This document shows, piece by piece, positions 33,961 to 50,585 of a stretch of DNA of 64,000 nt. The notes under the pieces were generated by a model. It did no database searches and was not told where the DNA came from. It saw only the letters and a list, made by a program, of their open reading frames with translations. A program made the position numbers and the translations under genes. Origin of the DNA: Salegentibacter salegens (GTDB lineage Bacteria > Bacteroidota > Bacteroidia > Flavobacteriales > Flavobacteriaceae); the NCBI RefSeq assembly GCF_900142975.1, contig NZ_LT670848.1:1674001-1738000 (forward strand), given 5' to 3'. Numbering within the stretch: position 1 is the first letter of the stretch; each line of letters opens with the position of its first letter.

Positions 33961-34172
33961 TTCAAGATTAAAAACAAACTTAAAGGGCCAGGAGGTTCTC
34001 AATCTCTCTTTGCGGTAGCAGCTGAACGTGTAAAGCAAAAATATGATAAAGGAACTTTCTCTGTCGCGAAATCTGAGCTGTCTATAACCTGGAAGAGTTT
34101 CTGAACCTCAAAACCACTCAAAAGAAAGAGGAGGTTAAAAAATCAATAAAAGAGCGAAATCGGGGGTTGTGA
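33961..34172 (+). pseudogene. Gene remnant running into the CRISPR array
   Basis: One frame reads KLKGPGGSQSLFAVAAERVK and QKYDKGTFSVAKSE. After a one-base shift near 34078 it continues AVYNLEEFLNLKTTQKKEEV and KKSIKERNRGL to a stop at 34170-34172, inside the first CRISPR repeat. Coding quality is good on both sides of the shift, and no start is visible. The family is not recognised. The array's upstream flank is therefore old coding DNA. Confidence 0.4.
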
Positions 34173-37100
34173 ATTGCTTTCAGAATTGTATTTTTAATTA
34201 GGATTCACAGGATTCTAAATATCCTAACTCTGAAGAAGTAGGTTGTGAATTGCTTTCAGAATTGTATTTTTAATTAGGATTCACAGGATTTGTTTTTGAT
34301 AATACTAAAACCATAGAGTTGTGAATTGCTTTCAGAATTGTATTTTTAATTAGGATTCACAGGATAAATGGCTTTACCATATCTTCGGGCGCAGTTGTGA
34401 ATTGCTTTCAGAATTGTATTTTTAATTAGGATTCACAGGAGTATGGAAAGAAGAGAATAGAGCTCCTGAGTTGTGAATTGCTTTCAGAATTGTATTTTTA
34501 ATTAGGATTCACAGGTCCAGATATGTCATTATACTTCAAGTATAGTTGTGAATTGCTTTCAGAATTGTATTTTTAATTAGGATTCACAGGGAAATTCTTA
34601 TGAAAGCCTTGCGCTCTTAAGTTGTGAATTGCTTTCAGAATTGTATTTTTAATTAGGATTCACAGGAAGGCTGATAAAAATTATAATGAATATCCTGTTG
34701 TGAATTGCTTTCAGAATTGTATTTTTAATTAGGATTCACAGGCGCGCTTTCTCCATCATTACCACTTAGCAGTTGTGAATTGCTTTCAGAATTGTATTTT
34801 TAATTAGGATTCACAGGTCTTCAACAATTAATACTCACTCATTATGAGTTGTGAATTGCTTTCAGAATTGTATTTTTAATTAGGATTCACAGGTTATGGA
34901 AGACGAAATACAAGAAGGGATCAGTTGTGAATTGCTTTCAGAATTGTATTTTTAATTAGGATTCACAGGCTCTGCTACATCTTCACTGGTACTAAACCAG
35001 TTGTGAATTGCTTTCAGAATTGTATTTTTAATTAGGATTCACAGGGACTTTATTTAGACTATCCATAGCTGCTGCGTTGTGAATTGCTTTCAGAATTGTA
35101 TTTTTAATTAGGATTCACAGGATAAATGGCTTTACCATATCTTCGGGCGCAGTTGTGAATTGCTTTCAGAATTGTATTTTTAATTAGGATTCACAGGAGG
35201 ATTTACGTAAACCAATTTGGTTACAATGTTGTGAATTGCTTTCAGAATTGTATTTTTAATTAGGATTCACAGGCAATTTGCATTTTTAAATTTCCGCCAA
35301 ATAGTTGTGAATTGCTTTCAGAATTGTATTTTTAATTAGGATTCACAGGAGTGACGGCTAAGGGTTGAACCTTTCAAGGGTTGTGAATTGCTTTCAGAAT
35401 TGTATTTTTAATTAGGATTCACAGGAATATCGCCGGGTTACAAGGCCATTCAAAAGTTGTGAATTGCTTTCAGAATTGTATTTTTAATTAGGATTCACAG
35501 GTTCGTTGCGGAACTTCATTCCGGCAACAAGTTGTGAATTGCTTTCAGAATTGTATTTTTAATTAGGATTCACAGGAAATAACGGCCTTATCACCTTAAT
35601 AAGCGAGTTGTGAATTGCTTTCAGAATTGTATTTTTAATTAGGATTCACAGGTGATGTTCTATTTAGGACAAAGCCAGAAGAGTTGTGAATTGCTTTCAG
35701 AATTGTATTTTTAATTAGGATTCACAGGGATATTCCTTTCTTCTTAGAATGGTCTGGGGTTGTGAATTGCTTTCAGAATTGTATTTTTAATTAGGATTCA
35801 CAGGCCAGCGTCGGCGTTTGGCGCGTTGTTTTGGGTTGTGAATTGCTTTCAGAATTGTATTTTTAATTAGGATTCACAGGCCGACAGAGATTTAAAAGAA
35901 GCGATCGAAGTTGTGAATTGCTTTCAGAATTGTATTTTTAATTAGGATTCACAGGGAAGCGATACGCGAAGACCTGGGAAAGATAGTTGTGAATTGCTTT
36001 CAGAATTGTATTTTTAATTAGGATTCACAGGGACTTTTTTTATAATTGAAGCCAACGCAAGTTGTGAATTGCTTTCAGAATTGTATTTTTAATTAGGATT
36101 CACAGGTCTAAACTGGTTATTCCTAAAGGAAGGTAAGTTGTGAATTGCTTTCAGAATTGTATTTTTAATTAGGATTCACAGGAAAGTTCGGCCAGGCTGT
36201 TAAGGTCCGAAGGTTGTGAATTGCTTTCAGAATTGTATTTTTAATTAGGATTCACAGGTTTACCGGGAAGATTATTCACTGGACGCAAGTTGTGAATTGC
36301 TTTCAGAATTGTATTTTTAATTAGGATTCACAGGTTTTGTTTTCCCATCGACGAAGCCGTTAAGGTTGTGAATTGCTTTCAGAATTGTATTTTTAATTAG
36401 GATTCACAGGGAAAATACAAAAAAGAAGTAGGGATTCTTGGTTGTGAATTGCTTTCAGAATTGTATTTTTAATTAGGATTCACAGGCGGTATTCACGCTG
36501 AAACTCCTGAGGACGGGTTGTGAATTGCTTTCAGAATTGTATTTTTAATTAGGATTCACAGGTTTTAACCAGCTATTAATAAAAAGCCAGTAGTTGTGAA
36601 TTGCTTTCAGAATTGTATTTTTAATTAGGATTCACAGGAAGCCAATGAAGAATTACAGGCGGCCGTTAGTTGTGAATTGCTTTCAGAATTGTATTTTTAA
36701 TTAGGATTCACAGGTAATATCGCCGTCGCTAATTTCGACGCCGGGTTGTGAATTGCTTTCAGAATTGTATTTTTAATTAGGATTCACAGGATAATCACAT
36801 TGGCAATTTCGGGATAGTTGGTTGTGAATTGCTTTCAGAATTGTATTTTTAATTAGGATTCACAGGTTTTAGCTCGGTATATTTGTCTAAAACTGAGTTG
36901 TGAATTGCTTTCAGAATTGTATTTTTAATTAGGATTCACAGGAAGCAAAAAAAAAGCACAGCAAGGCTTAGGTTGTGAATTGCTTTCAGAATTGTATTTT
37001 TAATTAGGATTCACAGGTTTTAATTTTTGAAGAAAAGGCTTCGTTAGTTGTGAATTGCTTTCAGAATTGTATTTTTAATTAGGATTCACAGGAAACCTGA

Positions 37101-38230
37101 ATTTGTGAACCAAAATTTAACGGTTGTGAATTGCTTTCAGAATTGTATTTTTAATTAGGATTCACAGGACTTTTGATCCGGGACACGAACACGTGGAAGT
37201 TGTGAATTGCTTTCAGAATTGTATTTTTAATTAGGATTCACAGGATTATCTCCTGCGTGACTTATAATCATCTCGTTGTGAATTGCTTTCAGAATTGTAT
37301 TTTTAATTAGGATTCACAGGGCTAAAAGGAATCCCATAAATGTTACCATTGTTGTGAATTGCTTTCAGAATTGTATTTTTAATTAGGATTCACAGGGCCG
37401 CCTTTCAATTAGGAATTAAAGAACCAGTTGTGAATTGCTTTCAGAATTGTATTTTTAATTAGGATTCACAGGACTTGTAAACGAAATTTTCAAACACTAC
37501 AAGTTGTGAATTGCTTTCAGAATTGTATTTTTAATTAGGATTCACAGGCCAGGTCGCGAATATTAAAGAATTAAAAAGTTGTGAATTGCTTTCAGAATTG
37601 TATTTTTAATTAGGATTCACAGGCTACTAACCAAAACCTAAACTTATTCAGAAGTTGTGAATTGCTTTCAGAATTGTATTTTTAATTAGGATTCACAGGC
37701 AGCGTCCAGGGTGGAAGCTGTCTTGTCAGTTGTGAATTGCTTTCAGAATTGTATTTTTAATTAGGATTCACAGGCATAGCGCTACCCACCTGTTTGCAAC
37801 AGGGGTTGTGAATTGCTTTCAGAATTGTATTTTTAATTAGGATTCACAGGATTTCCTGGATAAAGCCAATCTTGAGTTAAGTTGTGAATTGCTTTCAGAA
37901 TTGTATTTTTAATTAGGATTCACAGGTCAACACATGATTTATGTAGGTAATCATCAGTTGTGAATTGCTTTCAGAATTGTATTTTTAATTAGGATTCACA
38001 GGGTGAATCACAGGCAACCGCGCCAACATACGGTTGTGAATTGCTTTCAGAATTGTATTTTTAATTAGGATTCACAGGAACAAAAACCCCTTTCAACCTG
38101 GGAAGCGAGTTGTGAATTGCTTTCAGAATTGTATTTTTAATTAGGATTCACAGGACGACGACCTTATGTACCCCCTGGCGCCTAGTTGTGAATTGCTTTC
38201 AGAATTGTATTTTTAATTAGGATTCACAGG
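34166..38230 (+). CRISPR. Type II-C CRISPR array, 54 repeats and 53 spacers
   Basis: 54 copies of a 46-bp repeat that begins GTTGTGAATTGCTTTCAG and ends ATTAGGATTCACAGG; by eye all copies are identical, including both terminal ones. Of 53 spacers, 44 are 30 bp and 9 are 29 bp. Spacers 3 (34364-34393) and 13 (35122-35151) are identical. The first 18 bases of the repeat pair with the tracrRNA anti-repeat, which fixes the crRNA strand as +, that is towards cas2 and opposite to the cas genes. Within each repeat, TTG (positions 2-4), 19 bases, then TATTTTTA (24-31) matches the spacing of the Bacteroidota promoter, so each repeat may start its own crRNA. A terminator follows the last repeat. Confidence 0.99.
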
Positions 38231-38264
38231 ATACCCGCTATAAAAGGCTGGTATCCTGTTTTTT
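38227..38264 (+). terminator. Array-end intrinsic terminator using the last repeat
   Basis: CAGGATACC (38227-38235) pairs perfectly with GGTATCCTG (38250-38258), followed by six T. The first four bases are the end of the last CRISPR repeat. It works only for + strand transcripts, supporting the crRNA direction deduced from the tracrRNA, and protects the convergent cas operon from read-through. Confidence 0.85.
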
Positions 38265-38338
38265 AAGTGATCTATTAGAATTAAAAAATAAGAAGCTTTT
38301 GAGATGTCTTGACAGTATTCAGTAGGAGATTTAAAATC

Positions 38339-38701
<363 letters not shown>

Positions 38702-38726
38702 TCAACTTTATCCAAACCGAATATTA

Positions 38727-39623
38727 TTACTGGTAAACTGGATAAAGAATCCTTCGGCTTAGATTAGCAAAACACTCATAAAGTGAATTAGTCGTCCTAC
38801 TAAGGGCTACCATTAGCGGACTCCATTTTCCATCAATAAAAACATCTAAAGCAGGAATTTTTAGAAGTTGGGATTTCAAGTCTGTGGTCAATTCGTCAAT
38901 ATTCTCTTCTGCAACCACTATTTCATAAACCAGGTCATCTACATAAATCCGATAAGGTTCCATAATATCATCGGCCAGAGCAAAGGCATTATATTTATTA
39001 TGATGAAAGATTCCCACACCTGGCAGTAAGCCGGAACTAATTAAGGCTCTTGCAGTAATTGCTCGTAGAATCGCATACCCATAGTTAAGTAAATTGTTAG
39101 GAGGGTCTCCGTGCCGATATCTAGTAAATCCTTCTATTTCAAAAAGATTTTGCCAATAATGAGCGGCTGCAACGGCTTCATGATTTTCGGTATCGCCGCT
39201 TTTGACTTCTCCAGCCCAACGCACCAGTTTTTTATGGTTTTTATTTCTCTTAAAAAGGTGTTGCCCCTGGTTACTAACTTTAGCACTAATGGTTTGCTGC
39301 CATAGATTTTTCTTTAAAGGTAAACTAGCACTGAGTTGCGCCGAAAAGCGTTCTGTTTGTTCAGTATGTCCCACGAGGGGTTGCAAAATAGAGCAGGGTA
39401 AGTGCTGTTTATCGCAATTTACTACCGCAGCCTTGTTCTGAATAAGTTTGGTTATTAGTCCGTTGGTTAGAGTAATCTGCGGGTTTTCTAAAACTACCAT
39501 CCCAATATCTTCAATGGGAACTATTTTATTTTCTTTTCCTTCTTTAGGGAAAGAAACCACTAACTGTTCATTTTTTGTGCTTAAGTAAGCTGGATTGGCG
39601 AAAAAGAGAGTGCGTTTGATCAT
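38727..39623 (-). CDS. cas1: Cas1, CRISPR integrase
   Basis: 298 residues, normal for type II Cas1. The N-terminal beta domain (KRTLFFANPAYLSTKNEQLVVSF) precedes the helical catalytic domain. Metal ligands are visible: Glu in the AAAHYWQNLFEIEGF region, His in GVGIFHHNKYNAFALADDIMEPYR and the Asp of the same block. It inserts new spacers with Cas2. It starts 3 bp after the cas9 stop. Confidence 0.97.
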   Translation of the reverse strand: MIKRTLFFANPAYLSTKNEQLVVSFPKEGKENKIVPIEDIGMVVLENPQITLTNGLITKLIQNKAAVVNCDKQHLPCSILQPLVGHTEQTERFSAQLSASLPLKKNLWQQTISAKVSNQGQHLFKRNKNHKKLVRWAGEVKSGDTENHEAVAAAHYWQNLFEIEGFTRYRHGDPPNNLLNYGYAILRAITARALISSGLLPGVGIFHHNKYNAFALADDIMEPYRIYVDDLVYEIVVAEENIDELTTDLKSQLLKIPALDVFIDGKWSPLMVALSRTTNSLYECFANLSRRILYPVYQ

Positions 39624-39626
39624 AGA

Positions 39627-42600
39627 TTATAAATTCCAATTAATTGAACCATCTAAGTTCATTTCAAAATCTTTTTCTTCTATGGCAAAATTCCAATTTC
39701 CGGCTGTTAGCCGCATCAAAGGTTGCTTTTCGAAGCTTCCAAATGGTGAAGCTTCTTTGTACCCTTTTGGTAATTTTTTAGAAATATCGGTGTTTGGACC
39801 TGATACTAAATGATGTTTAAATTTTATTTTATTAGAATCTCCCTCAAACTGATACATTTTATACATTCGTTCAGAAAGTTCCTTTTCATCAAGTTCTTTT
39901 AATTCCTCTATATTTTCTTTGTAGAAAATAGCTTTTTGTCCAGATTTTAGAACAGCATATAAGGAAATTTCTGAACTCTTCTTTTTAATTAAATTGAACA
40001 GGGGTATTTCAAAAAAGTCACTTTCATTTCCAATGTCCAATTTAGCTAAATCGAAAATACCTACTATATTAATAGCCCGCTCCTCTTTACCTTTTATATC
40101 TCCTTTATAATACAAACAAAATGCATTTTCGCCATTTTGGGCATAAGTAGTTTGCTTGTATTCTTTTTCAGATTTAAAATCGTGTTCGTGTGGTTTTACG
40201 GCTGTTGAGTGTTTTAACCTATCAAAACACCTTATATGCCTTATTTTGTTGACTTTTTCTCCATTTTTATTTAGCATATAGACTCCGTTGGCTAATGCTG
40301 ACTTGAAACTATCAGCTTCATCTACTTGTTCTTTAATCAAACCAAATAATGCTTTATCCACAATAACTTTTTCTATGTCTGCTAAACTTTTAAAGCCTGG
40401 CGATGCAGCATCTTTAGCATACACGAGAGGTTTTCTTATTACTAATTTAATATCCTCGTGTAACTGCATTTTCCCATTATCAAATTTGATCTTATTGTTA
40501 TCGTCCCGCTTTGGTTGTTTAATTGCCCCATAAAAGGATTCTCCGTGCAACTGACCTCGTATAGTATCCCCTTTTGCCCATTTTGGGTTTCCATTTTCTT
40601 TTTTATCTATTTTGCCTCGTTTTCGAACCTTTTTAAAGGTAGCATTTAAAGTTCTATGCTCTTTAAGATTATTAATGAGTATTTCTTCTTCTATGTTTTT
40701 TATATATGAGACTTTAAAGTTATCCCACTCTTTTGGGGCTTCATGATAAACCTCTCCGAAGCCTTCATCCTTTTTTAATTGATATTCTTTAATAATTTTG
40801 TCCCGTTGGGCAGCTTTCGGAATTAATGTGAGAATAGCTCCATCTACTGCGTGATGACTGTGTTTTGAACGATCTTTTTTATCACTTCTTAATTTCACAT
40901 TGTACACTTCTTTAAATATATCAACAACACTTCCTTTTTGAACCTCTACACGATTAAAAACTGTTTTAAGATATGGCACTGCGTATTTGGTCATTATTTG
41001 GGTGTCGCGTAACTGGCTATTACGCCAGCCAGCTTTGAACTCTTCAATAGTAAAAGTTTGTAGTTTTTGCTTTAAATAATCTAATTCGAACTTTAACTTA
41101 TGCCTTTTCTGGATAAGGCTATCCCTTTTATCTTTTGGCTCAACACCTCTTAGACTACTTAATTTACTAAGTTGAAATTCAAGTTCCGCAATCTTGCTCC
41201 ACTTTTCAATAGTAATTTCTTTCTGTATACCTTTTTTCTTTAAAGTCTTTTTCTCTACACTTCTTTTGCCGAATAAGGCTTCAATATTTTTCAGGATAGG
41301 CTGAAGAGGCTTTCCATCAAAATCACATTCTGAATCATAATTATCAAGTTGTGTGGGGAATTTTTTGCCTTTGATATTCGAATTGTAATTTTTGTCGGCC
41401 AGTGTTAGGTTTTTTAATTCATTATCAAAACTAATGCTTGCGGGAATAGTATGCTCAAAATCATAGTATTCGCCATTCAACAAGTCGCATTTATTGATCA
41501 TCGCTCCGGTATACATGCATTTTTTACCTTGTTCTTCCCATAACCTGATTTTTCGAATTAAAGCTTTACTGTTAGGGTCAAAACTTGTGTTACATTCTTG
41601 GTTGATTTCTTCAATAGTATCACTTAACTTTTGGTTTTCCTTTTCTCGTTCATTTTGCCACTGTTCTAGAGCTTTACGGTAATTGGCGTCATTTAGCTCC
41701 CTTGCAATTTCAACAACAATCCTAGTATGAGAATCAATTAGTTGTGTTTGTAATAAAAAGTTTAGCAATTGCTTTAATTTATGTAAGCTTTTTAAAGCCA
41801 TCGGATTTTTAAAACCTTTGCTTATTGGTTCCGGATTTCCTAGAAGTTTTAATGAAATCCCGTCTGCCTCGGCATCAGGGTAGCGGTGTAAAAAAGAATT
41901 GAGTTCGTATTCCTTAATATAAAATACTTTGCCTTTTTGATTTATTTCCTGATAAGTATCTGAATTTGGGTATTTTTCCTGTTCTGAAGGATGCCATAAA
42001 TATTGAATGTTTTTTTTGGGAACCTGTTCTGGATAATATTCCTGCAAATAGTTGAAAATAGCGTCATGAATTCTAGGCTGTTCTACAAAACTCCCTTTCT
42101 TGGCTTGAAATGGTTTTTGAAGAAATCCTTTATATTTTTCTTTTACATAATTTACATATTCCTCTTTCTGGTCTTCATTAATCTCTTCCCAGGTTTTATC
42201 GCCTAATACATCAATTATATTCTGCTTAATCAAATTAATATCTGAGTTATCCAATTCTTCCTGTTCGGCTAAATGATAATCTCCCTCAGCCACCAGCTCT
42301 GTTCTGAATAAACTATTTAAAACATTATTTAACTTACGCTGGGTAGAAACACTTTCGTAAATTTCATCAATTTCAACAGCAAAATGATTAATAAACTCAT
42401 CTGAGATTTCATATGTTCCCAGAACTTTTTGAAGGTTGGCCATATATACAGCCTTGGAATAAGCATAGCCTTTTTGAAGGTAAGGTAGAATCTTTTTTAT
42501 AGCTGATAGACTTAAAGTAGCATAGCCTTGTTGAAGTCTTATTTTAGAAAATTTCTCTGCCTTCGCCTTTTCGAGTTTTAACTTTTCTAACGCGAATTCT

Positions 42601-43886
42601 TTTAATTTTTCTTCACTATCAAAGGTGAATAATACATGCCAAAGGTCTTCAAAAGTATAGTAACTTGAATTTTTCTTTGCTGGTTGAGCATTTCGAACAA
42701 AAGCCTCTTTCCAACCTAAATTTTCTTTCCAGTTTTCACCAAAAACATCTTCAAATTGTTTCAGTAGCTTTGTTGAAAGTACTTTTGTCTTTTCTCTTAT
42801 TGCATAACCGGAAGTAATTGTTGCCTCATCTTTGTCTAATTGATTGAGAATAGATTTAAGGCTGAAATTATTTCCCGTCTTATAAAAAACAGGATAGATC
42901 TTTTCTTTTAAATAATCTTCCTGCTTCCAACCTTCCGGAGCTTCAATCTTTAAATTATTGATAAAAACCCAGGTTCTATATTCTTCATACAACGGGTGGC
43001 TAATGGGGGCGCGTCTTTTGTTTTTTTCATAGGTACACAATCCTACCGAACCTTTTTGGGTACGCAAAGGCCTTTGCCAGATAATTGCTTTCCAAAGTTT
43101 TTCATAAGATGTTTTTTCCAAGCCTTGAACCTGACAGATTTCCTTTAATTCGTTTTCATAATCTTTTCTAAGATTATAGCGCTGACGGATCCTTATTTTT
43201 TCACCATTAGTAGATTTTTCTTTTTGATAATGGTATAATGCTGCTCCTAAGCTTCGGTGTTTTATAATATAATTTTTAATTTCATTTCTGCCAGGCGTGT
43301 CATTATTTTTGCTGCCCTCTAACATAGTTTTAGCTTCCTCTTCATCACGCCCTTTAAAACCACGGCGTTGCACTAAATGATAAAATACCCTTCCTAAGAT
43401 TTGAGGATTCTCCTGAAAGACTTTTTTATCAGCTTCATTTTCACTTATTGCTTTAGCACGGAATAAATAATGGTTTTCGTGTGCATCACCTCCTAGGAGA
43501 TGAAAGTCTGGTTTGCCATCTCCATTAAAATCATATCGCAACCAATTGATGAAGGCTTCAGTCTGGGGATATTTTCTAGGATTGTTTTTGTTATATTTTC
43601 GCCATTCATCTAACTCCCCTATGGTTAAAGGGCACATATTTTTATTAATTAGAAACTCCAGTAATTCCCATTTACGGTATTTTTCGGCTTGATAATTTCT
43701 TCGTTTGCCACGACTTTCTGTACGTTTTTTAACTTTCGGAAACTCTATACCTTTTTCTTCCCCAACTCCTTTATCGAAAATTAATACACCCGATTTTATA
43801 ATTTGATTTTTCAATGCTGATACATCTCGAATAGCCCAGCCAATGCTATTTGTTCCTAAATCAATTCCTAAAGTTAAGTTACTCAT
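39627..43886 (-). CDS. cas9: Cas9, type II-C, large Bacteroidota form
   Basis: 1419 residues; most II-C Cas9s are 1000-1100, but ~1400 is usual in Bacteroidota. Catalytic motifs are intact: RuvC-I LGIDLGTNSIGWA (Asp9), an Arg-rich bridge helix near 55-80 (RTESRGKRRNYQAEKYRKW), RuvC-II VVEIARELND (~720), HNH YDFEHTIPASISFDNELKNL (His ~811) with NYNSNIKG, and RuvC-III SHHAVDGAI (~1011). The C-terminal region is the PAM-interacting part. No Cas4 or Csn2 is present, consistent with II-C. A palindrome and the tracrRNA lie upstream. Confidence 0.98.
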   Translation of the reverse strand: MSNLTLGIDLGTNSIGWAIRDVSALKNQIIKSGVLIFDKGVGEEKGIEFPKVKKRTESRGKRRNYQAEKYRKWELLEFLINKNMCPLTIGELDEWRKYNKNNPRKYPQTEAFINWLRYDFNGDGKPDFHLLGGDAHENHYLFRAKAISENEADKKVFQENPQILGRVFYHLVQRRGFKGRDEEEAKTMLEGSKNNDTPGRNEIKNYIIKHRSLGAALYHYQKEKSTNGEKIRIRQRYNLRKDYENELKEICQVQGLEKTSYEKLWKAIIWQRPLRTQKGSVGLCTYEKNKRRAPISHPLYEEYRTWVFINNLKIEAPEGWKQEDYLKEKIYPVFYKTGNNFSLKSILNQLDKDEATITSGYAIREKTKVLSTKLLKQFEDVFGENWKENLGWKEAFVRNAQPAKKNSSYYTFEDLWHVLFTFDSEEKLKEFALEKLKLEKAKAEKFSKIRLQQGYATLSLSAIKKILPYLQKGYAYSKAVYMANLQKVLGTYEISDEFINHFAVEIDEIYESVSTQRKLNNVLNSLFRTELVAEGDYHLAEQEELDNSDINLIKQNIIDVLGDKTWEEINEDQKEEYVNYVKEKYKGFLQKPFQAKKGSFVEQPRIHDAIFNYLQEYYPEQVPKKNIQYLWHPSEQEKYPNSDTYQEINQKGKVFYIKEYELNSFLHRYPDAEADGISLKLLGNPEPISKGFKNPMALKSLHKLKQLLNFLLQTQLIDSHTRIVVEIARELNDANYRKALEQWQNEREKENQKLSDTIEEINQECNTSFDPNSKALIRKIRLWEEQGKKCMYTGAMINKCDLLNGEYYDFEHTIPASISFDNELKNLTLADKNYNSNIKGKKFPTQLDNYDSECDFDGKPLQPILKNIEALFGKRSVEKKTLKKKGIQKEITIEKWSKIAELEFQLSKLSSLRGVEPKDKRDSLIQKRHKLKFELDYLKQKLQTFTIEEFKAGWRNSQLRDTQIMTKYAVPYLKTVFNRVEVQKGSVVDIFKEVYNVKLRSDKKDRSKHSHHAVDGAILTLIPKAAQRDKIIKEYQLKKDEGFGEVYHEAPKEWDNFKVSYIKNIEEEILINNLKEHRTLNATFKKVRKRGKIDKKENGNPKWAKGDTIRGQLHGESFYGAIKQPKRDDNNKIKFDNGKMQLHEDIKLVIRKPLVYAKDAASPGFKSLADIEKVIVDKALFGLIKEQVDEADSFKSALANGVYMLNKNGEKVNKIRHIRCFDRLKHSTAVKPHEHDFKSEKEYKQTTYAQNGENAFCLYYKGDIKGKEERAINIVGIFDLAKLDIGNESDFFEIPLFNLIKKKSSEISLYAVLKSGQKAIFYKENIEELKELDEKELSERMYKMYQFEGDSNKIKFKHHLVSGPNTDISKKLPKGYKEASPFGSFEKQPLMRLTAGNWNFAIEEKDFEMNLDGSINWNL

Positions 43887-44911: not shown

Positions 44912-44919
44912 TATATTTG
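44912..44919 (+). promoter_or_regulatory. Putative promoter of the leader RNA / sigma operon
   Basis: TATATTTG matches TAnnTTTG exactly. The -33 position has only TAG or TTA, so an activator may be needed. Transcription would begin near 44925, about 300 bases before the sigma gene. Confidence 0.45.
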
Positions 44920-45027
44920 CGATACTTCTTTAAGTAAAACATTAGAAGCATTCGCTTTGAGTCTTGAACAGAAAACTGGTAATTTTCAACAAACCACAAG
45001 ATGATAAGTGTAAATGCTCACGACCCG

Positions 45028-45100
45028 GGCGTGGGCTTACTTGATCGTGGTAAGGTATACCAGTGCCTCTGTTCGATAAGTTGAGTCTCCACGCCTTTTT
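45028..45100 (+). ncRNA. Structured leader RNA or small RNA with terminator
   Basis: Three nested stems can be read: GGCGTGG (45028-45034) with CCACGCC (45089-45095); ACTTGATCG (45039-45047) with CGATAAGT (45074-45081, one bulge); TGGTA (45048-45052) with TACCA (45058-45062). Five T follow the outer stem, as in an intrinsic terminator. It lies between the promoter-like box and the sigma gene, so it may be an attenuator or a free small RNA. Its first 11 bases equal the start of guide 2 of the downstream module. No known RNA family recognised. Confidence 0.55.
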
Positions 45101-45230
45101 GTTTGTAAAAACAGGCTTTCTTCTCAATTGTTCTCAAAGCTACCTTCTCTTTATACCTTATAAGAATTCGCTTTAGCTAAATTCAGTTTAATTCTGGAGG
45201 TAATTACCTCCGGCTAAATAACGACTGCTT

Positions 45231-46010
45231 ATGTTACAGCCTATTTTTGAATTATTACAACAAGGCCATCCCGATGCTTTGAAGATTATCTATACCAGAT
45301 ACCACAGAAGAATCTATTGGTTAGGGAAGCAATTGATAAAGGATGAATTTGTCATAGAAAACATCCTTCAGGATACTTTCTTAAAACTATGGGAGAATAG
45401 GGAAGGGATTGAACACCCGGAACATATTTACTTTTTCCTTCGTTATGTGATGAAAAGGGATTGTACCTTTTATTATTGTCGCCCCCGGCATAATTTTTAC
45501 CGGGGCATAGGCAGGTTAGAATATTACGAGGACTACCAGGAATATATGCACGGCTATGATCCGGAAGAAAAAGATGAGCATCTAATGATGCAGGAAGCCA
45601 ACCAGAAAGCTTTCGATCGGATTCAGAATGTCCTCCCTTTGCTTAGTAGTGAAAGAAAACGACTTATTGAACTCTGTTTAAATTACGGTTTTCAGTATAA
45701 GGCCATTGCCCAGACAATGGGAACCAGCATCACCAAAACCAGTACCGAAGTAAAAAGCGCCATTAATGATATTAAAAATATCATTAACAAAGGGAGTTCG
45801 CTCGAAGCTAAACCACAACCGATGTTGGCGGTAAAGATCCAGGGTACTATGACCTGGGAACAGGAAAAGGTGTTACAGCTGCGTACAGAAAAGCAATATT
45901 CATTTGCGGCTATTGCCAAAGAACTGAACCTTTCCAAAAAGGAAGTGCACAAGGAATTTATGGCTGCCTATAAACTGACACAGCTTAATTACGAACAACA
46001 ATCAGCTTAG
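45231..46010 (+). CDS. ECF-like sigma factor linked to dead Cas12f
   Basis: 259 residues, longer than usual ECF sigma factors (~170-200). Region 2 (~14-80) is seen in YTRYHRRIYWLGKQLIKDEF and QDTFLKLWENREGIEHPEHI; region 4 (~130-185) in LLSSERKRLIELCLNYGFQY and KAIAQTMGTSITKTSTEVKS. A C-terminal extension (~205-255) holds another helix-turn-helix-like block, WEQEKVLQLRTEKQYSFAAI and AKELNLSKKEVHKEF. No FecR-type anti-sigma gene adjoins it. The stop is two bases before the dCas12f ATG, so the two are translationally coupled. It should recruit RNA polymerase core; in this context promoter choice may come from the Cas12f-guide complex. Confidence 0.88.
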   Translation: MLQPIFELLQQGHPDALKIIYTRYHRRIYWLGKQLIKDEFVIENILQDTFLKLWENREGIEHPEHIYFFLRYVMKRDCTFYYCRPRHNFYRGIGRLEYYEDYQEYMHGYDPEEKDEHLMMQEANQKAFDRIQNVLPLLSSERKRLIELCLNYGFQYKAIAQTMGTSITKTSTEVKSAINDIKNIINKGSSLEAKPQPMLAVKIQGTMTWEQEKVLQLRTEKQYSFAAIAKELNLSKKEVHKEFMAAYKLTQLNYEQQSA

Positions 46011-46012
46011 TC

Positions 46013-47113
46013 ATGGGAAAAGATACCATAAAACTCACCCGAAAGATCCAGCTACAGGTGGACGCCCCTACCAAAGAAGAAAAAAAGGAGGCTTATGATG
46101 CCCTGTATCGCTGGCAAAACCGAAGTTTCAGGGCGGCCAACCTTATTGTTTCCCACCTCTACGTGCAGGAAAGGATCAAGGAATTCTTTTATTTATCGGA
46201 AGGAATAAAATATAAGTTAGCGGATGAAAAAAAAGCTGAAGACGGCATACTCAATCGTTCAAAAATCAACTGTACCTACCGGGTGGTTTCCGATCGTTTT
46301 AAAGGGGAAATTCCTACCAACATTTTAGCCAACCTGAACTATAATATAATCAATAACTTTCGTAACAACTTGCTGGAATATAGGAGCGGAGAACGTTCCC
46401 TGGCAAATTTCAGAAGGGATATCGCTTTTCCGTTTGGACCAATATGTATTCTAGGCTTCACTTTTAAAGAGGAAAAAAAAGCCTTTTGTTTTCGTTTGTT
46501 TTCCATCCCCTTTAAAACGTATCTAGGGAAAGATTACACGGATAAACGACGGTTACTGGAACAAGTAGTAGCCGGCAAAATCAAGCTATGTACCTCTAAA
46601 ATTCAACTGAAAGGTCAAAAAATTTATTGGTTGGCCGTATTTGAAATTGAAAAAGAAAAGCATAAACTAAAACCGGAAGTTATTGCAGAAGCTTCTTTAT
46701 CTATTGAGCATCCTATTATAGTGAAATCCGGAAAGAAAACCCTTAGTATTGGCAGTCGAGAAGAGTTTCTATATAGAAGGCTAGCCATACAGGCTGCTCG
46801 CAAAAGGGCACAAAGCGGAGCCACCTATTGCAGACCGGGAAAAGGTCGTAAACGCAAAACAAAAGCTGTGGGAGGATTCCACGAACAGGAAAAAAACTAT
46901 GTAAGTAACCGCTTGCATGTATACAGCCGAAGGCTAATTGATTTTTGCATTAAAAATCAAGCGGGGACACTCATTTTGTTAAACCAGGAAGATAAAATGG
47001 AAATTGCCAAAAAAGAAGACGGATTTCTTTTAAGGAATTGGAATTATTACGAACTGATGACAAAAATAAAATACAAGGCCAAGAAAGCCGGAATTGAACT
47101 TATAGTAGGTTAA
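46013..47113 (+). CDS. Nuclease-dead, C-terminally truncated Cas12f homologue
   Basis: 366 residues. The N-terminal part follows Cas12f/TnpB order, including SLANFRRDIAFPFG and LEQVVAGKIKLCTSKIQLKG, then YWLAVFEIEKE before the RuvC domain. The RuvC-I site reads EASLSIEHPI (~225) where active proteins have VDLGI, so the Asp is gone. RuvC-II reads TLILLNQED (~320) where an I-x-x-E-D-L type Glu is expected. The protein stops at NWNYYELMTKIKYKAKKAGI-E-L, exactly before the zinc finger (CxxC) and the RuvC-III Asp of normal relatives. All three catalytic residues are therefore missing. Expected role: RNA-guided DNA binding without cleavage, in partnership with the sigma factor. The gene end overlaps the guide scaffold repeat. 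Confidence 0.88.
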   Translation: MGKDTIKLTRKIQLQVDAPTKEEKKEAYDALYRWQNRSFRAANLIVSHLYVQERIKEFFYLSEGIKYKLADEKKAEDGILNRSKINCTYRVVSDRFKGEIPTNILANLNYNIINNFRNNLLEYRSGERSLANFRRDIAFPFGPICILGFTFKEEKKAFCFRLFSIPFKTYLGKDYTDKRRLLEQVVAGKIKLCTSKIQLKGQKIYWLAVFEIEKEKHKLKPEVIAEASLSIEHPIIVKSGKKTLSIGSREEFLYRRLAIQAARKRAQSGATYCRPGKGRKRKTKAVGGFHEQEKNYVSNRLHVYSRRLIDFCIKNQAGTLILLNQEDKMEIAKKEDGFLLRNWNYYELMTKIKYKAKKAGIELIVG

Positions 47114-47217
47114 ATTCAATGATGAGGGTGCTTGTACACCCGTAAGGTGAGGTCCCTAATAGCACTCACTAAATGCACGCAGCATATACAACCCTTCCCT
47201 TTAAGATTAGAGGAGCT
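47040..47217 (+). ncRNA. Guide RNA unit 1 (153-bp scaffold unit plus guide 1)
   Basis: The 153-bp unit (47040-47192) contains the last 74 bases of the dCas12f gene and 79 non-coding bases. Hairpins: CACC-CGTAA-GGTG (47137-47149) and ATGC-(5)-GCAT (47173-47185), then ATACAAC. The next 25 bases, up to the second unit, form guide 1, beginning CCTTCCCTTTAAGATTAGAG. As in omega RNAs of TnpB, the scaffold abuts and probably overlaps the protein gene's 3' end. No terminator is seen before unit 2, so processing may occur. Confidence 0.75.
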
Positions 47218-47395
47218 GGAATTATCACGAACTGTTGACCAAAATAAAATACAAGGCCGAGAAAGCCAGTATTGAACTTATAGTAGATTAAATTCAATGA
47301 TGAGGGTACTTGTACACCCGTAAGGTGAGGTCTTGAATAACGCTCACTAAATGCACGAAGCATATACAACGGCGTGGGCTTTCTTATTTTAATTG
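47218..47395 (+). ncRNA. Guide RNA unit 2 (153-bp scaffold unit plus guide 2)
   Basis: The unit 47218-47370 repeats 47040-47192 at a 178-bp spacing with about 19 differences; both hairpins and the ending GCATATACAAC are kept. Guide 2 starts GGCGTGGGCTTTCTTATTTT and shares nothing with guide 1. Thus the scaffold is conserved and the sequence after it is free, the layout expected of guide RNAs. Confidence 0.75.
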
Positions 47396-47473
47396 CACGA
47401 ATTGGATTCAGCTCACATCAACTGTTAAAAAGTTTTTAGACTAGGAATAGAATTATTTAGAAGAATAAAATTT

Positions 47474-47562
47474 GGTATTTATACACCTTCGAGGTGTTCT
47501 TTTATTTAGCTTCTCTGAATGCATAGGCATATCGAAGCGTGAATTCTTTTAATTGGAAAAAA
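47474..47562 (+). ncRNA. Diverged third guide RNA
   Basis: GGTATTTATACACC matches GGTACTTGTACACC of unit 2 at 12 of 14 positions. The hairpin ACACC-TTCGA-GGTGT keeps the stem with a different loop, and ATGC-ATAG-GCAT lies at the same distance (36 versus 37 bases), followed by AT and five bases. The guide would begin CGTGAATTCTTTTAATTGGA at 47538. The rest is strongly diverged, so this copy is old. Confidence 0.55.
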
Positions 47563-47649: not shown

Positions 47650-48888
47650 TTAGTTTTTCGTTTCATTGGTGGCTAAGTCCAACTCTAGCCGACCTTCAAA
47701 TTTAATAGCTAATTGTTGAACTACCAAACCCCAGTTCTGCAGTGGGGCGTTCCATTTCTTTTCAATTCTTCTGGTAGCTAGGTAAACCAGCTTCAATAGT
47801 GCCATATCATTGGTAAAAGCGCCTTTGGTCTTGGTTACTTTTCTTACCTGCCGGTGAAAAGCCTCTACGGCATTTGTGGTGTATATGAGTTTTCTAATGG
47901 GTGCGGTATATTCAAAATAAGCACTCAATCGGTCCCAGTTATCATTCCAGGAACGGATCACTATGGGATATCTTTTGCCCCATTTTTCTTCCAGATCCAG
48001 TAAAGCCGATTCAGCCTGGTCTTTGGTGTCAGCCTTGTACACCAGTTTAAGGTCTTTCATAAAATCTTTTTGATCCTTACTGGCCACATACTTCATACTA
48101 TTGCGGATCTGGTGGACAATACATAGCTGAATATCAGTCTTGGGATAAACAGAATGAATGGCTTCACTAAAGCCCGTAAGATTATCCGTACAGGCAATCA
48201 GAATATCTTTTAAGCCACGGTTGTTTAATTGGGTCAGCACCTGAAGCCAAAAATTGGCCCCTTCACTTTCCGAGATATACATACCCAGCACTTCCTTTCT
48301 TCCAGCTTTATTTATTCCTAAAATATTATACAAGGCCTTGTGCTTTACTTTGCCTTCTTCGCGTACCTTGAAGTGCATCGCGTCGAGCCATAGGATGCAA
48401 TATACCGGCTCCAAGGGGCGATCCTGCCATTCCTTAACCTTGGGAATCACCCGGTCCGTAATATCACTTAGAACGTGTGTGGATATCTTGGAATCATACA
48501 TTTCCTCTATATGAGCTGAGATATCCCGCAGGCTATTGCCCATCCCGTACATGCCTATAATCTGCTTTTCTAAATTATCGGCCAGGATACGCTGGCGTTT
48601 CGCTACGATCTCCGGCTCAAAGGTACTGTTACGATCCTGGGGCGTGTTAATGGTGACGTCCCCTTGGCTGCTCTTTAGGGTCTTTTTGCCTTTGCCATTA
48701 CGCTTATTACCTGCTTTTGAGCCTTTTTCTTCATCGGAAAGGTGCGAAGACATTTCTGCTTCCAGGGCCTCTTCCATAAACTCCCTAAGCATTGGAGCAA
48801 AAGCGCCGTTTTTGCCGGTTAGGGATTCTCCTGATAAAAATTGTTTTAATGCTTTTTCCTTTAATTCCTTAATCTCTTCTTGTGTCAT
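47650..48888 (-). CDS. IS256-family (Mutator-type) transposase
   Basis: 412 residues, normal length. DDE residues lie in LWLDAMHFKVREEGK (D1), ACTDNLTGFSEAI (D2) and TTNAVEAFHRQVRKVTK (E). The conserved QLCIVHQIRNSMKYV C/H block is present. The frame is intact, so the element may be active. It cuts and pastes or copies the IS using the 24-bp ends. Confidence 0.95.
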   Translation of the reverse strand: MTQEEIKELKEKALKQFLSGESLTGKNGAFAPMLREFMEEALEAEMSSHLSDEEKGSKAGNKRNGKGKKTLKSSQGDVTINTPQDRNSTFEPEIVAKRQRILADNLEKQIIGMYGMGNSLRDISAHIEEMYDSKISTHVLSDITDRVIPKVKEWQDRPLEPVYCILWLDAMHFKVREEGKVKHKALYNILGINKAGRKEVLGMYISESEGANFWLQVLTQLNNRGLKDILIACTDNLTGFSEAIHSVYPKTDIQLCIVHQIRNSMKYVASKDQKDFMKDLKLVYKADTKDQAESALLDLEEKWGKRYPIVIRSWNDNWDRLSAYFEYTAPIRKLIYTTNAVEAFHRQVRKVTKTKGAFTNDMALLKLVYLATRRIEKKWNAPLQNWGLVVQQLAIKFEGRLELDLATNETKN

Positions 48889-48974
48889 AATCTAGTCTAA
48901 AAATTTTAATTTAATTTTCAAAGTCTAGACAGACTTGAGATTACACCCTCTTGCTAAAATTCAATCGGTGATTT

Positions 48975-49973
48975 TTAGTCAATTTTATTTATACGTTTAT
49001 TTAATTGATTTAACTTATCAATTAAATCCTCGAATGGTTCAGTTTTACCATAGAACATACTTTCCTCCATTGCAGAATAATCCCTTTTGTATTCTTCCAT
49101 AATACTTTCTGGTGGCGTGAATTTTAAGGTTTCATAATTATGTTTAGAATAATCTACCCAAGAAATTTTGGTGAGCTTACTTCGGTGATCAACAATTGTA
49201 GTGTACAAATCTTTGTCTTCTAAAGCTTGATCTAAGTATTTTGTTTCCATTAATTTAGAAATATCATATAAATGTCTTGTCATACGAGCACTTCTTATTT
49301 TTCGATCTTTTGGTTTTTGAAATTCTTCGTGAAGCAAGAACATTTTTTCTAATAGCGTTCGAGATGGAAGAACCGTAGGAATTTCGATTTTATCACCACT
49401 AAATTTTTGATCTGGATAAACCATACTAATTAAAGATTTTAATTCTCTCAACTCATAAGGTTCGATCAAGGATCTTGAACTAATTTCGATCAATATTCTG
49501 GGATGAAGGTATTCCTGCTTTTCTACTAGCGACTTATACCGTAATTCAATTGCTAGCGGATCAGTATCTGACTCTTCGAATTCTGTAATGCTTATTTCAA
49601 ATTCTTTCACACCCTGTTTTAACAAGGCTTCATTCAATTGTTCTTCAAACTTTTCACTTACATATTTACAGGATGCTTTTCTTAATTTTTTTACTTGAGT
49701 TCTACTTAAATCTCCTTCAAAACCAAAAAATGATCTATCGATTGCTAAATCAATATCTTCTGAAAACCTTTCAATTATACTCCACGCCTTGCTTAATGAA
49801 GTTCCACCTTTAAAAACCAAATAGTCTTTTAATTCAGTGCTAAAAATTGCTTTCAAAGCAATCATTACCCATAGATCTTTTTCGATAGCCACAGGGAGTA
49901 AACCTTTTTTCGAACTAACTTGATCTATAATTAATTTTCGATCCTTTTCACTCAGATTAAACCATTCTTCCAT
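48975..49973 (-). CDS. AbiEii-type nucleotidyltransferase toxin
   Basis: 332 residues with the AbiEii/AbiGii nucleotidyltransferase motif: KGGTSLSKAWSIIERFSEDIDLAID (G-S then D-x-D near residues 60-82). The N-terminal KDLWVMIALKAIF helix is typical. Family toxins block growth by modifying tRNA ends or similar targets and give phage abortive infection. The ATG follows immediately after the antitoxin stop. The IS256 element inserted 24 bp past its stop. Confidence 0.88.
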   Translation of the reverse strand: MEEWFNLSEKDRKLIIDQVSSKKGLLPVAIEKDLWVMIALKAIFSTELKDYLVFKGGTSLSKAWSIIERFSEDIDLAIDRSFFGFEGDLSRTQVKKLRKASCKYVSEKFEEQLNEALLKQGVKEFEISITEFEESDTDPLAIELRYKSLVEKQEYLHPRILIEISSRSLIEPYELRELKSLISMVYPDQKFSGDKIEIPTVLPSRTLLEKMFLLHEEFQKPKDRKIRSARMTRHLYDISKLMETKYLDQALEDKDLYTTIVDHRSKLTKISWVDYSKHNYETLKFTPPESIMEEYKRDYSAMEESMFYGKTEPFEDLIDKLNQLNKRINKID

Positions 49974-50585
49974 TTATTCATCGCTATTTTCAACAGACTC
50001 CTTAATTATCTGATTGATCCATACCGGCACTAATTGAATGTCTTTTTGGATCACCTCAGAGTCAACTTGTTTTAATACTTCTTTTATTTTTTCTTTGACT
50101 TTAGGTGTAATGTTTTCCTTACCTAATTGTTTCAATGCCTGTATTATAAGAATGATCTTATCGCTTTTTACTGAAAATATTTTGGGAGAAGCTGTTTTAA
50201 ATTTAATACTACCATTATTAATCTTGATTGATCGGGAAGAGCCATCGGTTAGATAGACTATGTTCATAGGTACTTGAGTTGAAAGACCGAGTTTATTAAG
50301 GGCTTGATTTCCTGTAGGAATTATCCGAGCCTTATCTCTTTTTGCAATAGCTAATGCAATCTCTTCTGTTGTAGGTATTAATTCACCTAAAATAGGATGT
50401 TTTTTAGGATATAAATAAATTCCATGAGCTAGTCTTGTCAAAAACCCATCTTCTTCTAATCTATTTAAGGCTTGTCTAATAGCTGTAGAGGAACCTAATT
50501 TAGTAAAGTCAGACGGGAAAAAAATTTTTCCTCTCTTATAATTACTAATCTTATTTTTCACTCTATTTTCAATGGATTCAGGCAT
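49974..50585 (-). CDS. AbiEi-type antitoxin (DUF6088 family)
   Basis: 203 residues. A winged-helix N terminus (GKIFFPSDFTKLGSSTAIRQ, ALNRLEEDGFLTRLAHGIYL) with the family's YPKKHPILGELIPTTEEIA, then an antitoxin domain (IPTGNQALNKLGLSTQVP, IVYLTDGSSRSIKI). It should repress its own promoter and neutralise the adjacent toxin; stop and ATG abut. Confidence 0.85.
   Translation of the reverse strand: MPESIENRVKNKISNYKRGKIFFPSDFTKLGSSTAIRQALNRLEEDGFLTRLAHGIYLYPKKHPILGELIPTTEEIALAIAKRDKARIIPTGNQALNKLGLSTQVPMNIVYLTDGSSRSIKINNGSIKFKTASPKIFSVKSDKIILIIQALKQLGKENITPKVKEKIKEVLKQVDSEVIQKDIQLVPVWINQIIKESVENSDE

What the first reader, a model, noticed from the sequence alone, without database searches (positions are those of the whole stretch)
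45231..47562. Sigma factor plus dead Cas12f plus guide RNAs: a likely RNA-guided transcription module
An ECF-like sigma gene ends two bases before a Cas12f homologue without nuclease residues, and guide-like RNAs follow. Seen: gene coupling, lost catalytic motifs, duplicated scaffolds with different following sequences. Known: Cas12f/TnpB proteins bind guide RNAs encoded at or past their 3' end; sigma factors recruit RNA polymerase. As I recall, dCas12f-sigmaE pairs from Bacteroidota were recently reported to start transcription at guide-chosen sites with a minimal 5'-G motif. Inference: this locus is such a system, with several guides. It sits beside a type II-C CRISPR locus.
Basis: partly seen in the sequence, partly recalled or inferred. 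Interest (0 to 1): 0.97.

Follow-up and report, generated by a model that had tools for sequence, protein, structure and literature searches.

The report
Guide RNA targets its own leader
A sigma-factor gene and a nuclease-dead Cas12f gene are followed by predicted guide RNAs, one of which matches 14 of 15 bases of a conserved, predicted-structured leader in front of the same genes, so the pair would likely switch on its own operon by RNA guidance, as relatives would likely do for nutrient-uptake (SusCD) operons.

Summary
A 259-aa sigma ORF ends 2 bp before a 366-aa Cas12f homologue that lacks the RuvC residues and C-terminus. Two intact guide scaffolds and a decayed third follow. Both proteins match a solved dCas12f-RpoE complex (9n9c/9n9q) over nearly full length, so the proteins are a member of a known kind.

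The new part lies upstream. Guide 2 matches, 14/15 and after a 5'-G, the DNA of the operon's own leader, 203 bp before the sigma start. That leader is a conserved element without an Rfam match and with two mutually exclusive covarying folds; the guide copies the switching strand. The same leader precedes SusC/SusD operons, and the same guide class matches it in relatives. All 9 dCas12f-bearing genomes among 199 family genomes carry the leader, but so do 29 of the other 190: it looks like an independent RNA class that guides exploit.

Inferred: guided initiation past an attenuator, giving positive feedback. In this genome only the self-target was found; guides 1 and 3 have none.

The parts
44912..44919 (+). 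TAnnTTTG box (TATATTTG), a possible default promoter of the leader
   Evidence: TAnnTTTG 30-80 nt upstream of the leader in 66 of 84 distinct copies, 4 in the control stretch; that this is the Bacteroidota -7 consensus is recalled
44975..45103 (+). Conserved leader element (model R1); helices P1-P4, enclosed by P0 (44964-44972 with 45068-45076)
   Evidence: no Rfam match
45027..45042 (+). Predicted guide-2 target: G at 45027, then 45028-45042 identical to guide 2 in 14 of 15; also the strand shared by P3/P4 and hairpin T
45078..45100 (+). 3' arm of the alternative hairpin T (45078-45095) and T-run: predicted terminator
   Evidence: at least 5 T in the next 8 nt in 66 of 85 copies. Termination untested
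45231..46010 (+). ECF-like sigma factor, 259 aa
   Evidence: 9n9q_C RpoE, E 2.1e-86
46013..47113 (+). Nuclease-dead Cas12f homologue, 366 aa
   Evidence: 9n9c_A, E 1.5e-174
47033..47370 (+). Tandem duplication: 47033-47192 and 47211-47370, 90% identical
47124..47192 (+). Guide scaffold 1
47193..47212 (+). Guide 1 (no target found in this genome)
47302..47370 (+). Guide scaffold 2
47371..47390 (+). Guide 2 (matches the operon's own leader)
47473..47560 (+). Decayed third scaffold and following sequence (guide 3), by eye
   Evidence: not found by the motif search; no target

Best explanation
This is a sigma factor-dCas12f gene pair, homologous to a solved complex, whose second predicted guide RNA likely directs the pair to the DNA of its own operon's predicted-structured leader, where the sigma factor would start transcription beyond the guide-DNA hybrid. 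Shown here: the gene pair, its homology, the lost RuvC residues, the scaffolds, the in-register guide-leader match after 5'-G, and the conservation and covariation of the leader. Inferred: a default promoter makes a leader RNA that either folds as P0-P4 or ends at hairpin T. A transcript started downstream of the target would lack the 5' arm of T (45028-45042), could not form that terminator, and would read into the sigma and dCas12f genes: positive feedback. In relatives the same guide class matches the same leader in front of SusC/SusD operons, so one guide would serve both target operons and feedback. In this genome only the feedback site was found.
For: Homology to the solved complex. Guide 2 matches 14 of 15 in register after G; genome-wide at most 2 mismatches of 16 gave 7 places, the self-site and the guide itself being the best, and the other five lie inside ORFs of 273-607 aa. 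In 17 of 76 loci tested a guide has at most 2 mismatches of 14 to a site 145-215 nt before the sigma start on the + strand after G, and 0 of 76 on the minus strand. Of 36 GCGTG-type guides with a leader known in the genome, 28 match one at 12 or more of 15, and 0 of 59 reversed guides do. Both leader folds covary. SusC/SusD follow the leader. dCas12f and leader co-occur (9 of 9 against 29 of 190).
Against: No RNA, binding or transcription data. The direction of the effect and the start site are inferred; the distance rule is recalled. Leaders and their target strand occur equally in genomes without detected dCas12f, so the leader has another role. Same-genome guides match leaders no better than other genomes' guides in most cases. 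39 of 81 sources show no leader in the fetched stretch, and 2 of 35 genomes none at all; guides of L067 and L072 match their genome's only leader copy at 9 and 10 of 15. The free fold of the window leader is P0-P4 (-59.4), not T (-53.4 kcal/mol). Decayed parts (third scaffold, second dCas12f copy) could mean a system in decline.
Confidence: 0.6

Rival explanations
1. The same complex binds its own leader DNA but acts as a roadblock to transcription from the upstream promoter: negative feedback.
For: The target lies downstream of a conserved TAnnTTTG box, and nuclease-dead TnpB relatives (TldR) repress (abstract and passages of PMC13418256).
Against: The partner is a sigma factor, solved with dCas12f in 9n9q; the same guides match SusCD leaders, where a dedicated sigma suggests activation (inference).
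Confidence: 0.18
2. Guide 2 acts on RNA: it pairs with the T arm of the leader transcript and prevents the terminator, without DNA targeting.
For: Guide 2 can pair with the T arm, which the guide-like strand of the leader itself pairs with.
Against: Pairing with the template-strand copy is more stable in 33 of 36 guides (RNA parameters). A 5'-G precedes the sites. A guide with a TCATCC block matches a leader with the same block in the same genome, 14 of 15, although by eye the T arm of that leader does not complement the block.
Confidence: 0.1
3. The system is in decay here: the self-match is a relic of a guide whose SusCD target operon has been lost, with no present function.
For: One leader in the genome, no match for the SusC-upstream block, a decayed third scaffold and a dCas12f pseudogene elsewhere.
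Against: Both main ORFs are intact, and self-sites recur in 16 other loci.
Confidence: 0.1
4. An ordinary ECF sigma gene that happens to lie beside a transposon-derived TnpB-like remnant.
For: Some sources name relatives transposase.
Against: Pairing with 1-2 bp gaps in 71 of 80 loci and a structure with both proteins.
Confidence: 0.02

Closest known systems
dCas12f-sigmaE RNA-guided transcription of Allomuricauda (Flagellimonas) taeanensis, PDB 9n9c, 9n9m, 9n9o, 9n9q (the 2025 preprint by Hoffmann and colleagues is recalled, not read)
   Same: Same two proteins at nearly full length, same gene order, scaffold past the 3' end, target after 5'-G
   Different: Two intact scaffolds plus a decayed one; the guide class differs (L043 has TTGTGGGATATACGC); the target found is the operon's own leader. 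Whether the preprint describes leaders or self-targets is not known to me
TldR, TnpB-like nuclease-dead repressors (PMC13418256: abstract and passages seen)
   Same: RuvC-dead TnpB/Cas12-type protein with a guide, acting on transcription
   Different: TldR represses flagellin genes and comes from TnpB; here a sigma factor is the partner
Attenuators and riboswitches with alternative terminator hairpins
   Same: Two exclusive covarying folds, one followed by a T-run
   Different: No Rfam match; signal unknown; the switching strand is copied in guide RNAs
CRISPR-Cas type V-F (Cas12f nucleases)
   Same: Sequence relationship (9nzo, 8hr5, 9i8y and others)
   Different: RuvC residues and C-terminus lost; guides are tandem scaffold units with no CRISPR repeat array among the features found there

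Membership tests
dCas12f-sigmaE RNA-guided transcription | Cas12f homologue without RuvC catalytic residues | tested here: met
   alignment to 9nzo; the labels of the residues are recalled
dCas12f-sigmaE RNA-guided transcription | Sigma factor gene directly upstream, homologous to the solved RpoE | tested here: met
dCas12f-sigmaE RNA-guided transcription | Guide scaffold past the 3' end of dCas12f | tested here: met
   (by sequence; no RNA data)
dCas12f-sigmaE RNA-guided transcription | Guide with a genomic target after 5'-G | tested here: met
   Guide 2 only; not met for guides 1 and 3
dCas12f-sigmaE RNA-guided transcription | Guide RNA bound, sigma and RNA polymerase recruited, transcription started | not testable with these tools
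   Needs experiments
TldR | No sigma partner; flagellin gene as target | tested here: not met
   Sigma partner present; target is a leader
CRISPR-Cas type V-F | Active RuvC nuclease | tested here: not met
Attenuator | Two mutually exclusive conserved folds, one terminator-like | tested here: met
Attenuator | Signal-dependent change of termination | not testable with these tools
   Needs experiments
Any described Rfam leader or riboswitch | Match to an Rfam 15 family | tested here: not met

The most novel reading that the evidence does not exclude
A widespread, undescribed RNA attenuator of Flavobacteriaceae SusCD operons has been captured by an RNA-guided sigma factor: guide RNAs carry a copy of the attenuator's switching strand, dCas12f-sigma starts transcription just past it so that the new transcript cannot terminate, and the sigma-dCas12f operon bears the same attenuator in front of itself, which wires targets and regulator into one RNA-guided positive-feedback regulon.
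Probability: 0.42. Interest if true: 0.9.

Novelty: new variant of a known kind. Interest (0 to 1): 0.8.

Why it matters
It says what many natural dCas12f-sigma guides match: a conserved structured leader shared by SusCD operons and by the regulator's own operon. That makes the biological role of RNA-guided transcription testable by changing one 16-bp site. It also puts forward a leader RNA class that occurs without detected dCas12f and whose signal is unknown. If right, an RNA-guided system evolved by copying the switching strand of an existing RNA switch.

Tried and rejected
Guide 1 and guide 3 targets: guide 1 (19-mer, up to 3 mismatches; 16-mer, up to 2) and guide 3 gave only the guides themselves or hits that lie inside ORFs of 212-589 aa; none was accepted. 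Guides of related Salegentibacter loci come within 3-4 mismatches of 16 of sites just upstream of SusC in their own genomes, but a 122-nt block with these sites has no significant match in the window's genome (best E 0.23).

The idea that the leader is conserved only because dCas12f targets it was dropped: 29 of 190 family genomes without detected dCas12f carry it, and the target strand is as well kept in 20 leaders from 11 of them (15.70 of 17 against 14.92 in 91 others). Limits: stricter Infernal filters were used, and dCas12f was called at E up to 1e-30.

The idea that guides match leaders of their own genome better than those of other genomes was mostly not borne out; the clear case is L037/L134. 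Scaffold covariation is weak because the scaffold hardly varies; a mis-registered structure was discarded. One search stopped half-way with a script error; one search did the work anew. The first in-locus guide search missed the window's own site through its matching mode and was replaced. Of 42 hits six (L025, L028, L030, L031, L033, L076) were dropped as false; five of these do have a leader further upstream. Of the 36 leaders, five (L044, L046, L047, L051, L065) were left out of A2 as near-duplicates. One search kept 65 distinct P0 pairs out of 91 copies (motif misses and repeats dropped).

Literature: searches for the dCas12f-sigma work and for a SusCD leader RNA found neither. The library lacks bioRxiv and most subscription papers. 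PMC12908284, PMC12385481, PMC13418256 and PMC13186708 were seen as passages only, the others as search listings. No structure was predicted, since a solved relative exists.

Full report
Observation. The window holds a sigma ORF (45231-46010, 259 aa) two bases before a Cas12f-like ORF (46013-47113, 366 aa). The sigma protein has two region 4 matches above cut-off and a region 2 match just below it; the Cas12f protein has no Pfam match. phmmer aligns all 366 residues of the latter to PDB chain 9n9c_A, named Nuclease-deactivated Cas12f (E 1.5e-174; the same sequence occurs in 9n9m, 9n9o and 9n9q), and residues 1-257 of the sigma protein to 9n9q_C, RpoE (E 2.1e-86). The first 102 residues of 9n9c equal those of locus L043, Allomuricauda taeanensis. 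Against 9nzo the RuvC-I Asp is Ser, the second acidic position is Leu and the C-terminal part is missing (labels recalled). Of 81 loci, 80 encode a protein of 364-366 aa.

Guides. A 160-nt tandem duplication (47033-47192 and 47211-47370, 90%) holds the 3' end of the Cas12f gene and a scaffold. A scaffold motif was found in 78 of 81 loci and two or more in 20 of the 77 related loci that have any. On 31 sequences three scaffold helices are kept in 99.8% of cells, with little covariation because little varies. Of 106 guides read in the 78 loci, 60 carry GCGTG within the first 8 nt (50 of 78 loci); GCGTGGGCTCTC is the commonest 12-nt start (24 guides).

Target. Guide 2 matches 45028-45042, 14 of 15, preceded by G at 45027. 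In the 4.01-Mb genome the 16-nt pattern with up to 2 mismatches gave 7 places; the two with one mismatch are this site and the guide itself, and the other five lie inside ORFs of 273-607 aa. By a simple count about 0.07 such matches after G are expected in the whole genome and 7e-6 in the intergenic stretch. In 17 of 76 loci tested a guide has at most 2 mismatches of 14 to a site 145-215 nt before the sigma start, on the + strand after G; on the minus strand 0 of 76.

Leader. The site lies in a conserved element. Thirty-one copies (A2) support a long hairpin P1-P4 (95.6% of cells paired, 8 pairs changed on both sides, 36 double-change cells against 8.8 in shuffles) and an alternative hairpin T that takes the target strand away to pair with ATAAGTTGAGT..CCACGCC (98.7%, 4 pairs, 11 against 2.6). 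A helix P0 encloses P1: 65 distinct pairs have mean helix length 7.80 against 4.28 (sd 0.14) in 500 shuffles; P2 gives 6.34 against 4.35 in 83 distinct pairs. A T-run follows T in 66 of 85 copies, and a TAnnTTTG box lies upstream in 66 of 84 (4 in a control stretch). The free fold of the window leader is P0-P4 at -59.4 kcal/mol; T-forced -53.4. Rfam 15 has no match for it or for SusCD leaders.

Distribution. Model R1 hits 42 of 81 sources, the own genome once (E up to 1), and 33 of 35 genomes reached through loci (a 36th locus, L068, was not held). Of 49 leader regions fetched (L133-L181), 24 are followed by an ORF pair of about 990-1020 and 460-500 aa (counted by hand). Pfam was run on 5 of these pairs, and all 5 are SusC and SusD. 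One region (L135) is a further sigma-dCas12f operon. Three in Sinomicrobium precede HEPN-domain genes. The pattern GGCGTGGGCTCTCTTAT gave 70 places against 6 for the reversed control in 23 genomes; the places include the guides themselves. Of 36 GCGTG-type guides with a leader known in the genome, 28 match one at 12 or more of 15 after G; of all 59 guides 30 do, and of 59 reversed guides none.

Independence. In 199 family genomes the leader was found in 38 and dCas12f in 9. All 9 have the leader; so do 29 of the other 190 (Fisher p 1.5e-7, relatedness not corrected). Twenty leader regions from 11 of the 29 were read; 12 show the 1000/470-aa pair (by hand), and Pfam confirmed SusC and SusD in L198 and L204, SusD in L211, SusC in L203. 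The six of G054 do not precede SusC. So the leader has its own role, and the guides likely copy it.

DNA or RNA. The guide equals the sense strand of the leader and would pair with its template strand. It could also pair with the T arm of the RNA, but the first duplex is more stable in 33 of 36 guides. A guide with a TCATCC block (L037) matches a leader with that block in the same genome (L134), 14 of 15. A second guide class, TTGTGGGATACACGC, matches another site downstream of the leader after G: one mismatch of 16 in L146 and L147, whose contigs end before a gene, and three in the SusC upstream regions L148 and L159.

Mechanism. Recalled, not read here: dCas12f-sigmaE complexes set start sites by distance from the R-loop. 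Starts downstream of 45042 would give transcripts without the 5' arm of T, so the terminator could not form: bypass of attenuation and positive feedback. The direction of the effect is inferred; a roadblock is the main rival.

Limits. This genome shows only the self-target; guides 1 and 3 and a SusC-upstream block have no match. A second dCas12f copy at C1:2825612-2826099 is a pseudogene whose scaffold and GGCGTGGGCTATTTATTTT guide remain. G016 and G020 have the guide class without a leader hit.

Verdict. The protein system is a member of a known kind. The coupling of its guides to a structured leader, and to its own leader, appears new as far as reach; the recalled preprint could not be read and may describe part of it.

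Noticed in passing
G000:C1:2825612-2826204 (L182:3613-4205): A second, broken dCas12f copy without a leader nearby keeps a scaffold (79% identical) and a guide that begins GGCGTGGGCT like guide 2.
   Followed up: partly
L146:1291, L147:1281, L148, L159:1283: A second guide class (TTGTGGGATACACGC, also in the A. taeanensis locus) matches a further site downstream of the leader; by eye the site opens an inverted repeat TTGTGGGA..TCCCACAA.
   Followed up: partly
L134:1521 and L136-L139 upstream of SusC: Salegentibacter SusC upstream regions share a CCTTCCCC..GGGGAAGG inverted repeat about 80 nt before SusC that resembles the CCTTCCC guides.
   Followed up: partly
L194, L195, L180 (also L192, L193, L197): Several leaders precede an ORF of about 110 aa instead of SusC; the three that were scanned have no Pfam match.
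   Followed up: partly
L142, L144, L150: In Sinomicrobium the leader precedes genes with a HEPN domain, in one case followed by a leucine-rich repeat protein.
   Followed up: no
window 34166-43886: CRISPR locus with 54 repeat matches, Cas2, Cas1 and a 1419-aa Cas9-like protein with an HNH domain; spacers not analysed.
   Followed up: no
window 47650-50585: A Mutator-family transposase gene and an AbiEii/DUF6088 pair, which looks like a type IV toxin-antitoxin system, follow the guides.
   Followed up: no
window 44939-44958 and 45155-45174: A 20-nt direct repeat, 85% identical, lies on both sides of the leader; its first copy is in the conserved stretch upstream of the leader.
   Followed up: no
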